A stretch of DNA of 60,069 nt, taken from Acidobacteriota bacterium (lineage in GTDB: Bacteria > Acidobacteriota > Blastocatellia > Pyrinomonadales > Pyrinomonadaceae). Shown here one piece after another: positions 35,416-40,373 of the stretch. Made by a program: the position numbers and the translations under genes. The stretch's first letter is position 1. Every line of letters begins with the position of its first letter. The stretch is taken from assembly GCA_003222895.1 (NCBI GenBank), contig QHXI01000057.1, positions 1,848 to 61,916 of the forward strand. The letters are read 5' to 3'. Below the pieces are notes generated by a model, which made no database searches, was not told the DNA's origin, and saw only the letters and a program-made list of their open reading frames with translations.

Positions 35416-35586
35416 GGAAATGCCCCGATCGGTTGCAGCTTGCTGGATTGGTCTAACGCGAGGTGCGGCAGAAGCTATCCGATCTTGTTCAGTCCGTCAA
35501 CAAATTTTCGCGAACCGGGTTGCGCGCCGAAACGAACTGCGACAATATTGGCGGGCTAATTCAAACAGACAACCAAAGAGGATTTG

Positions 35587-36324
35587 ATGGAACGCCGAAC
35601 AACGAGCTGGTTCAGCCCGAACCTGCAAATGGAAATGCCGCTGGTCGCGTATGGTCACGGCGGACAGACACTTTTGATGTTGCCGACAGCGGCGGCGGAT
35701 TATCTGGAGTACGAAAGATTTTATTTGGTCGATGCGATCAAGCCATTAATCGAGCACGGCAAGATTCGCGCTTACTCAATCAACAGCGTCAATCGTTGGA
35801 GCTTGCTGAACGAGCAGATGCCGCCAAATCTGAAAGCTGAGTTGCTGACGCGGTACGATCGATACATCACTGAAGAAGTTCTGCCGCTGATTCGAAACGA
35901 GAATGAAGAGAAGTTTGCGCGGCCGATCACGACGGGTGCGAGTTTGGGCGCGTTCCTCGCGGCCAATGAATATTTCAAACATCCCGATCTGTTTCGCGGC
36001 GTGATTGCCATGAGCGGGGGCTACGACATTCGCTCTTACCTGAAAGGGCATTACGACGACAACGTCTATTTCAACAATCCGATGGACTATCTGCCGAATT
36101 TGAATGACGAACATTACCTGCCGATCCTGCAGCAGGCAGATTCGATCCACATTATTTCGGGGCAGGGCGCTTATGAAGACCCGGAGCGCAGCCGGCAGCT
36201 CTCAGACATTCTCAACAGCAAAAACATTCCTCATAGTCTGGAGTTATGGGGTGCGGACGTGAATCACGACTGGCCCTGGTGGCGGAAGATGCTGCCGCAT
36301 GTTTTGGGAAAGATAGTGGGCTAG
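35587..36324 (+). CDS. Alpha/beta-hydrolase esterase (putative esterase family)
   Basis: A 245-residue enzyme with the nucleophile elbow TTGASLGAFLAANEYFKHPD (Ser in GASLGA), followed by FRGVIAMSGGYD, and an acid/His region near the C-terminus (GAYEDPERS; WGADVNHDWPWW with the likely catalytic His). It matches the esterase-D/antigen-85-like family often annotated only as putative esterase. The ATG at 35587 is preceded by AGAGGATTTG. No signal peptide; probably cytoplasmic. It is divergent from the BNR gene. Confidence 0.8.
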   Translation: MERRTTSWFSPNLQMEMPLVAYGHGGQTLLMLPTAAADYLEYERFYLVDAIKPLIEHGKIRAYSINSVNRWSLLNEQMPPNLKAELLTRYDRYITEEVLPLIRNENEEKFARPITTGASLGAFLAANEYFKHPDLFRGVIAMSGGYDIRSYLKGHYDDNVYFNNPMDYLPNLNDEHYLPILQQADSIHIISGQGAYEDPERSRQLSDILNSKNIPHSLELWGADVNHDWPWWRKMLPHVLGKIVG

Positions 36325-36384
36325 CAACATTTGCATCATTGACCCGCAGCTTACCATCTTCCATGTGAAGGTGGAGGCGACAGT

Positions 36385-36678
36385 GTGAAGCCAAATGCCG
36401 CTGAATACGAAATTGAATGGGACAGACGCAAGAATCTGCTCAATCAAGCGAAACATCGCATCAGTTTCGAGGAAGCCGCAACCATCTTCGCAGATCCTCT
36501 TGAAATAATGATTGACGATCCGGAACATTCAGAGAAAGAGCAGCGCTTCATCTCAATTGGCGAGTCTTTCAGTCGGCGATTGCTGGTAGTATCATATACC
36601 GAGCTCGGCGACACGATTAGGATTATCAGTGCACGCAAGCCGACGACACGCGAACGTCGCACATACGAAGGTAATTAA
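36385..36678 (+). CDS. brnT: BrnT-family toxin
   Basis: A 97-residue type II toxin of the RelE-like BrnT family: EIEWDRRKNLLNQAKHRISF then FEEAATIFADPLEIMIDDPE, RFISIGESFSRRLLVVSYTE and IRIISARKPTTRERRTYE, including the Arg and Lys positions used for RNA cleavage in BrnT. The start is GTG with GGAGG nine bases before it. The expected BrnA antitoxin gene is replaced by the fusion gene that starts two bases after the BrnT stop codon. Toxicity is inferred from the family. Confidence 0.88.
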   Translation: MKPNAAEYEIEWDRRKNLLNQAKHRISFEEAATIFADPLEIMIDDPEHSEKEQRFISIGESFSRRLLVVSYTELGDTIRIISARKPTTRERRTYEGN

Positions 36679-36680
36679 TT

Positions 36681-37280
36681 ATGCGGAGTGAATACGATTT
36701 CAGCCAAGGAATAAGAGGCGCGCACGCGGGTAAGCGTGCGCGTATCGTCGGAGAACGTTCCTCAGATGTCACTTCTCGTACGCAAGTCTCGGCGAAGGAG
36801 AGCAGCAATACCTTAACCGGCACGGCCGGAGAATATTACGTTTGCGCCGAACTTTGTCGGCGAGGTTATCTAGCGCTTCTTACCCCAAAGAACAACCCTT
36901 TATTCGATGTGGTGGCCACCAACATTGATGGAACGACTTCAATATCCATCCAGGTAAAAACCCGTTCAGCCCGCAACAAGCAGGGATGGAAATTGAATAA
37001 GCAGGTTTCTGCAAGCGACACACCGGGAGTTCCTTTCGTAGTACTCGTTAATTTACACGAAAGGGAGGCGCCGGACTTCTTCATCTATCCTTTTTCAGAG
37101 TTCGCTTCGCGCGTTAGAGAGGTATTCGACAGCTATATGAGCAAACTGAAGCGGAGCGGTGAACCACGCAAAGATCCGGGTTTCCGTTGGTTTGACGAAG
37201 TAAATCTCACCGAGGCAGATTTCGCTAGAAAAAACATTTGGCAACCCATTATTGACGCGTTAGACGCAAACGGCTCTTAG
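36681..37280 (+). CDS. Antitoxin-like leader fused to a PD-(D/E)XK-like nuclease domain
   Basis: A 199-residue protein. Its first 25 residues (MRSEYDFSQGIRGAHAGKR) match the leader of short antitoxins that open M-R-x-E-Y-D-F-S-x-x-x-R-G and partner BrnT-like toxins. From about residue 45 the sequence changes to LTGTAGEYYVCAELCRRGYL, then NNPLFDVVATNIDGTTSISI followed by QVKTRSA: a Glu helix, an Asp strand and a Q-x-K strand, the pattern of PD-(D/E)XK nucleases of the resolvase/restriction type. The gene begins two bases after brnT. It could be an antitoxin whose C-terminal half was swapped, or a nuclease under TA control. Domain calls are by eye. Confidence 0.65.
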   Translation: MRSEYDFSQGIRGAHAGKRARIVGERSSDVTSRTQVSAKESSNTLTGTAGEYYVCAELCRRGYLALLTPKNNPLFDVVATNIDGTTSISIQVKTRSARNKQGWKLNKQVSASDTPGVPFVVLVNLHEREAPDFFIYPFSEFASRVREVFDSYMSKLKRSGEPRKDPGFRWFDEVNLTEADFARKNIWQPIIDALDANGS

Positions 37281-37287
37281 TCGAACG

Positions 37288-37323
37288 AACAAAAAGAAAA
37301 CGCGGCGAGTGATCGCCGCGTTT
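37288..37323. terminator. Bidirectional terminator between nuclease gene and PBP1A
   Basis: AACGCGGCGA-GTGA-TCGCCGCGTT is a perfect 10-bp stem with a four-base loop. On the minus strand it is followed by TTTTCTTTTTGTT, making a strong terminator for the PBP gene; on the plus strand the T run is short. Confidence 0.85.
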
Positions 37324-37350
37324 CAACTCTCATCCTTCCGCCTCCATCCT

Positions 37351-39918
37351 TTAATTCGGCGGGCCATCGTCGCCCTTCTTACCTTTCTTCTTAGCCGGTT
37401 CGACTTCGCGTGGTCGGGATTGCGCCGGAGTCGCCACCGGGGCGGGTTTTACTTCTTTCGGACTTTCACTGGGTCGCCGCGGTTCCCCCGGTTCAGTTCG
37501 CGGGGGCGGGACGGTGTTGTCTTCCAGCCGCGGTGTGGTGATCGGGCTGGTGTTTACATCAGGCTGCGCAGTCTTGTCCGTCTGATCGGTCTCTTCATCA
37601 GCGGTCATCTGCGCGCGCTCGAGTTGCAACTCACGCTGACGTTGCTTGTACATCTCCTTCATGTCTTCGGGCATCGTGGGCGCTTTCGGAAAATCTTCCT
37701 TCGGCTTGTCCTTCATAAAGTCGCGCATGAAATCGATGAACATCGGCAGCGCACCATGCGCGCCGGTCATGTCGTTGCCGAGCGGTTTCTTTCTGCCCGG
37801 ATAACCCATCCACGCGCCGGTCACGTAGGTCGGCGTGTAACCGAGGAACCAGACGTCGGTATGATCGTTGACCGTGCCGGTCTTGCCGGCGAGCGGCATG
37901 TTAAGAACTTGCGCCGCCGAAGCCGTACCGCCCTGAATCACACCGCGCATCATCCCCACCATCGTCAGCGCGACGTACTCGCTGAAAACTTTATAGGTTG
38001 TCTTTTCCCACTCTTGCATCACCGCGCCGTCGCGATCGACGACCTTGCGAATCATGTGCGGCTCGACCCGAATGCCTTTGTTTGGAAAAGCTGAGTAAGC
38101 AGAGACCATCTGATCGAGCGGAACTTCGGTCGCGCCCAACGCCGAGGGAAGGTAAGGCGCCATCGGAACCTTGATGCCGAAGCGACGCACCATCTGCGCG
38201 CCGGTTTGAATGCCGACGGTTTGCAGCAGGTGCACCGCCGGAATATTCATCGAGTGCGCCAATGCCGTTTTCAGAGGCATGTCGCCGCAGCTGGTCGAGC
38301 CGTCATAGTTGTGCGGTTGCCATCCGTTGATATTGATTGCCGCGCCGCTGACCGTCGTGTCTGGTGTCATGCCCCATTCGATCGCCGCGCTGTATACGAA
38401 CGGCTTGAACGCGGAACCAGTCTGACGATAGGCCTGCACGGCGTTATTGAATTTGTTCCGCTGAAAGTCATAGCCGCCCACCATCGTGACCATCTCTCCG
38501 GTCTTGGCATTGATCGTCATCATCGATCCTTCAATCGCGGGAATCTGGTTCAACTCGACTTTCAGATGATGCGCTTTCTTGTCGACTTCTTTGATGATGA
38601 ACTCCGGCAGATAACCTGGCTTGAATTCACCGCGTGGCGATTTGTGGCCCCAACCCATGTCGGCGCCGGTCACTGTCGCCGTGTAATTACCGAAGCGCAC
38701 CGTGGCCTGATCGCCTGAATCGACTTTCATGACCAGGCCGACCAGATAGCGGCCCGGCTGGTATTCGCCGCGGTACCAATCCGGATACTTGAAGCCCGCG
38801 AGCTCCTGCTGCGTCGGGACTCCGTTGTCGGCAGATGTCGGAATCACTTGATAAGAAGAGCGCCAGCCGCTGTGCGACTTGTCATACCATCGCAAACCTG
38901 CGCGCAGAACTTCATACGCTTTCTTTTGCGCGGCGATGTTGATAGTTGAATAAACCGCCAGGCCCGTCTGAGCGACGCGTGTCGTGTACTTGTCTTCCAA
39001 ATCCTGACGAATGTATTCGACGGGATAATCGAACGCCGGATCAGTTGCTTGCGGCGGTTGATAGTAAGCCGAATCGGCGAGCTGGATTGGTTTTGTCTTG
39101 GCGGCATCGACTTCGGCCTGCGAAGCAAATCCATTCTTGGCCATTAGATCGAGCACGAGATCGCGTCGTTCTTTGGCCTTCGCCGGATTCGCCGTCGGCG
39201 AATATTCGCCGGGAGCTTTCGGAATCGCCGCGAGCAAAGCAGCTTCTTCGATCTTCAAGTCCTTCGCTTGCTTACCGAAATAAGTTTCCGCGCCCGCTTC
39301 CACGCCGTAGGCGTTTGCGCCCACGAAGATGTGGTTCGCGTAAAGCTCCATGATCTGGTTCTTCGTGTAGTAACGTTCGATTTGGAGCGCGAGCAGCCAC
39401 TCATTCATCTTTCGTTTATAGCTACGCTCAGGTGTGAGAAAGAGATTCTTGGCGAGTTGCTGCGTCAGCGTCGAACCGCCCTCGACCTTGTTGCTGGTGA
39501 AGTTCTTCCACGCCGCGCCGATAATGCGTATCGGATCAATGCCCACGTGATCGTAGAAGCGCACATCCTCTACGGCCAGGATCGCATTCTTCATGTTGGG
39601 CGGAATCTCTTCGTACTTGAGCGGGATGCGCTTCTCGAGCGCGAACTGGCCAATGACTGTCTGGCCGTCATCCGCGTAGATGCGCGTGACGATGCTGGGC
39701 CGATAAGTCGCAAGCGCGGCGACCTCGCTGGCGGCCTGCGAATAGTTGAGCTGGTACGCCGCGATGATTCCCGTCAATCCACCCGCGGCCAGCGCCAAGA
39801 GGAGCACCGCGGGAAACCAGAAGCGGCGCAAAATGTGTTTGCGCTCGCCCGGAGGGGCCGCGACGATTGCGCCCGGCGTATATGATTTCAAACGATTGAA
39901 TGGTGGTTTGGCAGCCAT
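37351..39918 (-). CDS. Bifunctional penicillin-binding protein 1A
   Basis: An 855-residue class A PBP that polymerises and cross-links peptidoglycan. It has a cytoplasmic leader, one membrane helix (about 31-55), the GT51 motifs EDVRFYDHVGID (117-128) and GGSTLTQQLAKN (147-158), and a transpeptidase domain with SAFK (about 503-506), SMN (about 553) and KTGT (about 677). The C-terminal 130 residues are Pro/Glu/Lys-rich and disordered. The ATG at 39918 (GGAG six bases upstream) is preferred to a further 45-residue extension. Length and motifs are typical of PBP1A (mrcA/ponA type). Confidence 0.93.
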   Translation of the reverse strand: MAAKPPFNRLKSYTPGAIVAAPPGERKHILRRFWFPAVLLLALAAGGLTGIIAAYQLNYSQAASEVAALATYRPSIVTRIYADDGQTVIGQFALEKRIPLKYEEIPPNMKNAILAVEDVRFYDHVGIDPIRIIGAAWKNFTSNKVEGGSTLTQQLAKNLFLTPERSYKRKMNEWLLALQIERYYTKNQIMELYANHIFVGANAYGVEAGAETYFGKQAKDLKIEEAALLAAIPKAPGEYSPTANPAKAKERRDLVLDLMAKNGFASQAEVDAAKTKPIQLADSAYYQPPQATDPAFDYPVEYIRQDLEDKYTTRVAQTGLAVYSTINIAAQKKAYEVLRAGLRWYDKSHSGWRSSYQVIPTSADNGVPTQQELAGFKYPDWYRGEYQPGRYLVGLVMKVDSGDQATVRFGNYTATVTGADMGWGHKSPRGEFKPGYLPEFIIKEVDKKAHHLKVELNQIPAIEGSMMTINAKTGEMVTMVGGYDFQRNKFNNAVQAYRQTGSAFKPFVYSAAIEWGMTPDTTVSGAAININGWQPHNYDGSTSCGDMPLKTALAHSMNIPAVHLLQTVGIQTGAQMVRRFGIKVPMAPYLPSALGATEVPLDQMVSAYSAFPNKGIRVEPHMIRKVVDRDGAVMQEWEKTTYKVFSEYVALTMVGMMRGVIQGGTASAAQVLNMPLAGKTGTVNDHTDVWFLGYTPTYVTGAWMGYPGRKKPLGNDMTGAHGALPMFIDFMRDFMKDKPKEDFPKAPTMPEDMKEMYKQRQRELQLERAQMTADEETDQTDKTAQPDVNTSPITTPRLEDNTVPPPRTEPGEPRRPSESPKEVKPAPVATPAQSRPREVEPAKKKGKKGDDGPPN

Positions 39919-40373
39919 AATTACTCCAGCTTTTTTACTCTCAAAATGCTTTAAGATGCCGGTTTCCGGCAACGTGGATTCCCACAGTCGTCCCAAAGTC
40001 CGAGGGGGATTATAACTTAGCCGGCGGCGAAGCTCGATACGGGGATCGGGCACTAGCCCGAACGTTATAGAAGGCCCATCGATTGTGCGGACGAAGCTAG
40101 AACCAGTACTGACGCGCGGGCAACTGCCCCGATCAATTTCCCTCTTGACTTAAATCGCCATGCGTGGCAATGAACTGTCTCACCTTAGCACGGTGGAAAT
40201 ATCGAGAACGTCGATAGCGAGCTACCAACAGCAAGCCGACTTGGACTTAGCGGGTGTGAACTGGTGAGCGTCGTGCACGAGACGGAACACTCAGCAGAGT
40301 ATTTTCTAAAGCGTCCGATTAGGGAGGATTCGTCCGCAGCGATCTGAATTTTTCGAAGTTGTAAGGAGGAGCC
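39919..40373. other. Divergent promoter region of PBP1A and a secreted protein
   Basis: A 455-base region without a coding frame. On the minus strand a TATAAT (40014 to 40009) lies about 90 bases before the PBP start, but its -35 region is poor. No repeats are evident beyond a GCCGG-aaa-CCGGC hairpin (near 39958-39970). Confidence 0.4.

What the first reader, a model, noticed from the sequence alone, without database searches (positions are those of the whole stretch)
36385..37280. BrnT toxin whose antitoxin partner is replaced by an antitoxin-leader/nuclease fusion
brnT is followed after two bases by a 199-residue protein that begins like an M-R-x-E-Y-D-F-S antitoxin but changes at about residue 45 to a PD-(D/E)XK-like nuclease pattern (GTAGEYYVCAEL, FDVVATN, IQVKT). 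A canonical BrnA is missing. This might be a new TA class in which a nuclease domain is held by the TA pair, or a recombination joining an old antitoxin leader to an unrelated nuclease.
Basis: partly seen in the sequence, partly recalled or inferred. Interest (0 to 1): 0.65.

Follow-up and report, generated by a model that had tools for sequence, protein, structure and literature searches.

The report
Antitoxin start fused to nuclease domain
A small bacterial RNA-cutting toxin gene is followed by a hybrid protein that keeps the short start typical of its usual antidotes but continues as a DNA-cutting type of enzyme, which suggests that this antidote start is a portable piece that can be joined to quite different proteins.

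Summary
brnT (36385-36678; PF04365, 94.7 bits) is followed after two bases by an intact 199-aa ORF. Residues 1-24 match the start of proteins encoded right after other brnT genes (profile without the window: E 1.8e-9 among 1722 window ORFs). Residues 44-199 are a complete PD-(D/E)XK-type domain (best fold match I-Ssp6803I, Z 12.9) with E51, D76, Q91 and K93 invariant in 29 rows. It is neither a frameshift nor visibly decayed. Of 58 fetched leader ORFs next to brnT, 57 are 42-125 aa with short, varied tails; only the window's (199 aa) carries an enzyme-sized domain. No second leader + this-nuclease fusion was found. The leader is, however, fused elsewhere to unrelated large domains without brnT next door: DUF6998 at the same chromosomal site in a congener, and a helicase protein in three genomes of one genus. 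Best reading: a chimeric BrnT antitoxin whose usual tail was replaced by a nuclease; neutralisation of BrnT by the leader is inferred, not shown. New variant of a known kind; the exact architecture is a singleton.

The parts
36385..36678 (+). brnT, ribonuclease toxin of the BrnT family, 97 aa, GTG start
   Evidence: PF04365 94.7 bits, whole profile; K16, N20, H24, R79, R84, E90 and Y94 among the invariant columns of 9 BrnT rows
36681..37280 (+). fusion gene, 199 aa, two bases after brnT
36681..36752 (+). leader, residues 1-24: N-terminal segment typical of proteins encoded after brnT
   Evidence: E 1.8e-9 with a profile that excludes it; 30 of 36 leader ORFs fetched from the family survey lie next to brnT
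36753..36809 (+). linker, residues 25-43, not conserved; unordered in the model
36810..37277 (+). PD-(D/E)XK-type nuclease domain, residues 44-199; E51 at 36831-36833, D76 at 36906-36908, Q91 at 36951-36953, K93 at 36957-36959
   Evidence: 28 aligned relatives; model mean pLDDT 83.5; I-Ssp6803I Z 12.9
37300..37321 (.). short inverted repeat followed by TTT, terminator-like, between the convergent genes; a like one stands at this place in L039
   Evidence: read by eye; not scanned
35584..36324 (+). conserved esterase-like gene, left border of the variable interval (name by resemblance)
   Evidence: found in 106 of 118 family genomes at E up to 1e-60
37351..40053 (-). PBP1a-like gene, right border of the interval (name by resemblance)
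   Evidence: its C-terminal part matched downstream of the esterase in 26 of 30 loci looked at

Best explanation
The pair is a BrnT-type type II toxin-antitoxin operon whose antitoxin is a chimera: the conserved N-terminal leader of proteins encoded next to BrnT is joined in frame to a whole PD-(D/E)XK nuclease-type protein, which took the place of the usual short tail. Shown: intact brnT; intact adjacent fusion ORF; leader homology; complete nuclease fold with its conserved residues; the leader is a constant module that occurs with many different tails. Inferred: the leader binds BrnT and keeps it inactive; the nuclease domain supplies the self-association or DNA contact that a ribbon-helix-helix tail supplies in BrnA, and may itself cut DNA. 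The likely consequence is that a cell with this operon is safe from BrnT only while it makes the fusion protein, so the toxin holds the nuclease in the genome.
For: Intact brnT with no other evident partner: the three other strong BrnT genes of the genome have their own leader antitoxins. Leader constant, tail varied: 58 fetched leader ORFs next to brnT, 57 of them 42-125 aa (tails); 11 of 19 viral BrnT loci also carry a leader ORF. Nuclease complete and unspoiled: invariant residues, fold, 3 of 40 conserved columns changed, no row of 29 with more than 3. Leader grafted elsewhere too: DUF6998 in L039 (139.3 bits) and a helicase protein in L139-L141, with leader-free relatives that begin after it. 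In the literature BrnA binds BrnT in a 2:2 complex and its RHH domain is C-terminal (passages of PMC5086665, and PMC11980606).
Against: One genome only. The site is an insertion site with a leader remnant in a congener. In L039 and L139-L141 the leader has no brnT next door, so it can persist without BrnT. That the leader binds BrnT is not shown by any search: the BrnT-antitoxin model left the leader at pLDDT about 41 (inconclusive, as no aligned row covered that half).
Confidence: 0.6

Rival explanations
1. Replacement scar: a nuclease gene landed in an old brnT-antitoxin operon at an insertion site, removed the antitoxin tail and uses its start codon. The leader is only a 5' end, and BrnT is silent, weak or held by an antitoxin from elsewhere.
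For: The esterase-PBP1a interval is variable across the family. G002 keeps 22 leader codons beside an opposite-strand Uma2 gene and no brnT; G121 keeps the leader beside an interrupted brnT. The junction falls at the same place (after about codon 24) in G000, G001 and G002. Three other leader antitoxins exist in the genome.
Against: brnT and nuclease are both intact; two fusions at this site (G000, G001) are in frame to complete domains; leader residues are kept with about as many synonymous as replacement codon changes (5-8 against 5-8 of 22), which suggests mild protein-level constraint.
Confidence: 0.25
2. Guarded enzyme: the nuclease is the working part (for example in defence), and BrnT is carried as a second, stronger weapon released when the fusion protein is titrated or destroyed.
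For: Domain relatives resemble restriction, homing and SPARDA nucleases in fold; a weak PADLOC hit to TmtA, residues 25-107, E 5e-4; BrnT-like genes lie immediately upstream of CoCoNuT systems (PMC11090510, passages); the leader also sits on a helicase protein.
Against: No defence gene was identified next to it (esterase-like and PBP-like neighbours); fold matches show no function; no recurrence of the operon.
Confidence: 0.1
3. Assembly or gene-call artefact.
For: The genome is a 167-contig assembly and only one genome shows the fusion.
Against: The frame is open over 199 codons, both flanks keep the gene order of the family, and the nuclease part has no start codon of its own before codon 77.
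Confidence: 0.05

Closest known systems
BrnT/BrnA type II toxin-antitoxin system (Brucella abortus)
   Same: BrnT family toxin first, partner gene directly after it, partner with the leader motif of BrnA-type antitoxins (L076, leader plus PF14384)
   Different: The partner has a PD-(D/E)XK-type domain instead of the C-terminal RHH; neutralisation and autoregulation are untested
Aave_1720-Aave_1719 double-ribonuclease TA (PMC10714953, passages)
   Same: BrnT-like toxin first, BrnA-like antitoxin that is reported to have nuclease (weak RNase) activity
   Different: That antitoxin has 107 residues and no nuclease domain was identified in it; here a separate PD-(D/E)XK-type domain is attached
I-Ssp6803I homing endonuclease and Hjc/NhoI/SPARDA nuclease domains
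   Same: Fold of residues about 41-199, Z 12.9 for I-Ssp6803I and 8-10 for the others
   Different: 17% identity or so; leader in front, brnT upstream; no activity known
BrnT genes upstream of CoCoNuT systems (PMC11090510, passages)
   Same: BrnT-like toxin gene immediately upstream of genes with nuclease domains
   Different: A multigene McrBC-type system; the passages read mention no antitoxin leader on it

Membership tests
BrnT/BrnA type II TA system | Toxin of the BrnT family | tested here: met
   PF04365 94.7 bits against a cut-off of 34.5
BrnT/BrnA type II TA system | Partner gene directly downstream with the leader motif | tested here: met
   gap of two bases; leader E 1.8e-9
BrnT/BrnA type II TA system | Antitoxin with BrnA (PF14384), CopG (PF12441) or RHH domain | tested here: not met
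   no such family at E up to 1 in Pfam for the 199-aa protein
BrnT/BrnA type II TA system | Partner neutralises the toxin by binding and represses the operon | not testable with these tools
   no call shows binding; the model is inconclusive
PD-(D/E)XK nuclease superfamily | Core fold | tested here: met
   Z 12.9 to I-Ssp6803I, 129 residues aligned, rmsd 3.3
PD-(D/E)XK nuclease superfamily | E...D...(Q/E)xK active-site residues | tested here: met
   E51, D76, Q91, K93 invariant in 29 rows; their catalytic role is recalled, not tested
PD-(D/E)XK nuclease superfamily | Nuclease activity | not testable with these tools
   needs an assay
Pfam PDDEXK_5 (PF11645) | Score above the curated cut-off | tested here: not met
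   13.8 against 26.1 bits
Double-ribonuclease TA (Aave_1720-Aave_1719 type) | Antitoxin with RNase activity | not testable with these tools
   needs an assay
Homing endonuclease (I-Ssp6803I type) | Carried by an intron or other self-splicing element | not tested
   no search for intron RNA was run; the ORF lies directly after brnT

The most novel reading that the evidence does not exclude
The MxxEYDFSxGxRGK leader is a portable BrnT-docking module that is grafted onto unrelated large proteins (PD-(D/E)XK nuclease, DUF6998, helicase protein), making enzymes that carry or neutralise a ribonuclease toxin: two-tier systems in which damage to, or engagement of, the enzyme frees BrnT.
Probability: 0.15. 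Interest if true: 0.8.

Novelty: new variant of a known kind. Interest (0 to 1): 0.5.

Why it matters
It shows BrnT partners as a constant leader plus a replaceable tail, with an enzyme as the tail. That gives a direct test: residues 1-43 alone should neutralise BrnT. If they do, the leader is a minimal antitoxin tag, and large proteins that bear it without brnT next door become candidates for cross-talk with BrnT genes elsewhere in the genome.

Tried and rejected
Frameshift or chance motif: rejected. Decay of the nuclease: not seen. A family of brnT-leader-nuclease operons was looked for and not found in genome contigs (33 loci), 60 relatives (matches in 6), 297 genomes of the phylum (matches in 21), plasmids (2 weak records), phages (no match) and viral contigs (1 relative, L208); a leader profile run on 61 loci (the nuclease and DUF6998 relatives) hit only a separate BrnA-like ORF behind a brnT in L003. 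Leader + DUF6998 elsewhere: only G001 among 118 family genomes; the viral relative L209 and the plasmid loci L244 and L245 have no leader (3 further plasmid records were not fetched). L179 is a false leader match inside a 512-aa frame. L044 (G002) is a leader remnant whose 169-aa frame runs antisense to Uma2.

Leader structure: in the fusion model the leader is unordered, but no aligned row covers it, so this says little. A BrnT-antitoxin single-chain model was meant to show docking; in two alignments BrnT rows were laid on the antitoxin half, and the one used covers only BrnT in depth; leader at pLDDT about 41. Inconclusive.

Limits. No call names the G-handle genomes, the window's own included. 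Heaton 2012 on BrnT/BrnA is not held. Paper searches that ran; among the titles and abstract starts listed I saw none describing this fusion; passages, not whole texts, of PMC11980606, PMC10714953, PMC5086665, PMC8616854 and PMC11090510 were read. Most subscription papers are not covered, so absence from print is not shown. The 20 phylum and 20 other-phyla places fetched were chosen mainly for long open frames; the other places listed were not fetched. In one search, 36 of the 42 family places counted as leader ORFs; four were listed as not leader-like (three of them, L055, L058, L074, have an I-D-F-S form) and the remaining two are not among the rows. One of the 20 other-phyla 'leader ORFs' is the false match L179. 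In one search, 5 of the 33 loci (L022, L028, L030, L031, L032) were left out because their frames are broken or partial.

Full report
What is there. brnT at 36385-36678 (97 aa, GTG start) is a full-length BrnT-family toxin (PF04365, 94.7 bits). Two bases later a 199-codon ORF begins. Its first 24 residues match the starts of proteins encoded right after other brnT genes; its residues 44-199 are a complete nuclease-type domain. A leader profile built from 23 other leaders finds this ORF at E 1.8e-9, and the next of 1722 window ORFs at 0.97.

The nuclease half. A scan of genome contigs gave 33 loci. Twenty-eight of them with readable frames align from about residue 38, with 26 invariant columns that include E51, D76, Q91 and K93. 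A leader profile finds no leader on any of the 33. The predicted structure is confident from about residue 46 on (mean pLDDT 83.5). Its best fold match is the homing endonuclease I-Ssp6803I, Z 12.9 over 129 residues, followed by SPARDA, NhoI, Eco15I and Hjc chains at Z 8-10. The window copy differs at 3 of 40 columns that are at least 90% conserved in the other rows; no row of the 29 differs at more than 3. It does not look like a decaying copy.

The leader half. A profile of three leaders found 42 places in 27 of 119 genomes of the family. A 24-row profile found matches in 97 of 396 genomes of the phylum (E up to 0.05) and, at E up to 0.001, in 25 of 199, 33 of 194 and 46 of 198 genomes of the phyla of a Pirellulales, a Tychonema and a Desulfobacteraceae genome (these names from the record titles). 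In the family set 36 of the 42 fetched places are leader ORFs and 30 of the 36 lie next to brnT; among 20 phylum picks and 20 other-phyla picks it is 13 and 15. The 58 leader ORFs next to brnT are 42-125 aa long except the window's 199 (the picks favoured long frames). Tails differ widely: BrnA type (PF14384, 42.0 bits, in L076), a D-P-D-V...S-V-N-x-A-L-R type, an L-P-I-Y-L type, helical types and others (described by eye). Eleven of 19 viral BrnT loci also carry a leader ORF. So the leader is the constant part and the tail is replaceable.

The own genome. G000 has five PF04365 matches. The three other strong ones have, or are fused to, ordinary leader antitoxins; the fifth is weaker (43.9 bits) and is followed by an 88-aa ORF without the leader. 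The window's brnT therefore has no evident partner other than the fusion. Third-position GC is low in brnT (50%) and in the nuclease part (51%) against 67 and 69% in the esterase-like and PBP-like neighbours, but the other brnT genes of this genome are as low (50-52%), so this does not date the nuclease.

The site. The operon lies between an esterase-like gene and a convergent PBP1a-like gene. This interval is variable across the 30 loci read: short in G006; Uma2 in G002 (PF05685) and, by resemblance, in G004 and G034; other ORFs elsewhere. At this site G014 has brnT (64% identical) plus leader with an 83-aa product; G121 has the leader and an interrupted brnT; G001 has a leader fused to a whole DUF6998 domain (139.3 bits, profile 3-136 of 136) and no brnT there; G002 has 22 leader codons beside Uma2 and no brnT there. 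Free-standing DUF6998 proteins begin about where the leader of the G001 protein ends. Pairwise, the five leaders differ by 5-8 synonymous and 5-8 replacement codons of 22, which points to mild protein-level constraint.

Other large fusions. In three genomes of one genus of the same phylum (G164, G408, G429) the leader starts a protein of 1318 aa (G429), 1482 aa (G408) and at least 1426 aa (G164, cut by the contig end). The G429 protein has a ResIII/DEAD helicase part above cut-off and HSP90-like ATPase and sacsin-like stretches below cut-off. No brnT was found in the 6-7 kb loci around it. Among 272 genomes of the phylum 4 matched the first 400 residues: G164 from residue 1, G248 and G240 from residue 31-32 with no leader in front, and G264 over a short stretch. 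The leader was thus gained, or lost, at the front of otherwise similar proteins.

How it most likely works. From the literature (passages of PMC5086665 and PMC11980606): BrnT is a ribonuclease toxin, BrnA binds it in a 2:2 complex that represses the operon, and BrnA's RHH domain is C-terminal. Inference: the N-terminal leader is the BrnT-binding part. The fusion protein would then neutralise BrnT through the leader, and the PD-(D/E)XK-type domain would stand in for the RHH. Whether it cuts DNA, and what would free BrnT, is open. A BrnA-like antitoxin with weak RNase activity is in print (PMC10714953), and BrnT-like genes occur immediately upstream of CoCoNuT systems (PMC11090510), so a nuclease beside BrnT is not without precedent.

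What speaks against a class. The brnT-leader-nuclease order is known from one genome only, at a site where genes are often exchanged, with a leader remnant in a congener. The replacement-scar reading keeps a quarter of the weight. The verdict is an intact chimeric-antitoxin candidate, a new variant of the BrnT/BrnA kind, not a shown new class.

Noticed in passing
L139, L140, L141 (G408, G164, G429): The BrnT-antitoxin leader starts a protein of 1318-1482 aa (one cut by the contig end) with a ResIII/DEAD helicase part and weak HSP90-like ATPase matches; relatives in another genus lack the leader.
   Followed up: partly
L039 1460-2014 (G001): The leader is fused in frame to a complete DUF6998 domain at the same esterase-PBP1a site as the window operon, with no brnT there.
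   Followed up: partly
window 36325-37350 and the same interval in L084-L113: The interval between the esterase-like and PBP1a-like genes is a variable insertion site that holds different small genes in different genomes, Uma2 among them.
   Followed up: partly
L138, L162, L211: brnT and its leader antitoxin stand in one open frame, that is, natural toxin-antitoxin fusions; L211 is in the window's own genome.
   Followed up: no
L163, L180 (phylum of the Tychonema genome): Leader antitoxin-like ORFs with an unusual tail that holds two similar segments (PGVQFLRDHH.../LDQLQFLMDHQ... in L163); brnT directly upstream in L163, not in L180.
   Followed up: no
L003, L009, L208: Free-standing relatives of the nuclease lie near toxin-antitoxin-like genes in 3 of 17 loci looked at by eye: brnT with a leader antitoxin, HicA/HicB-like genes, and an XRE antitoxin-like gene (names by resemblance).
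   Followed up: no
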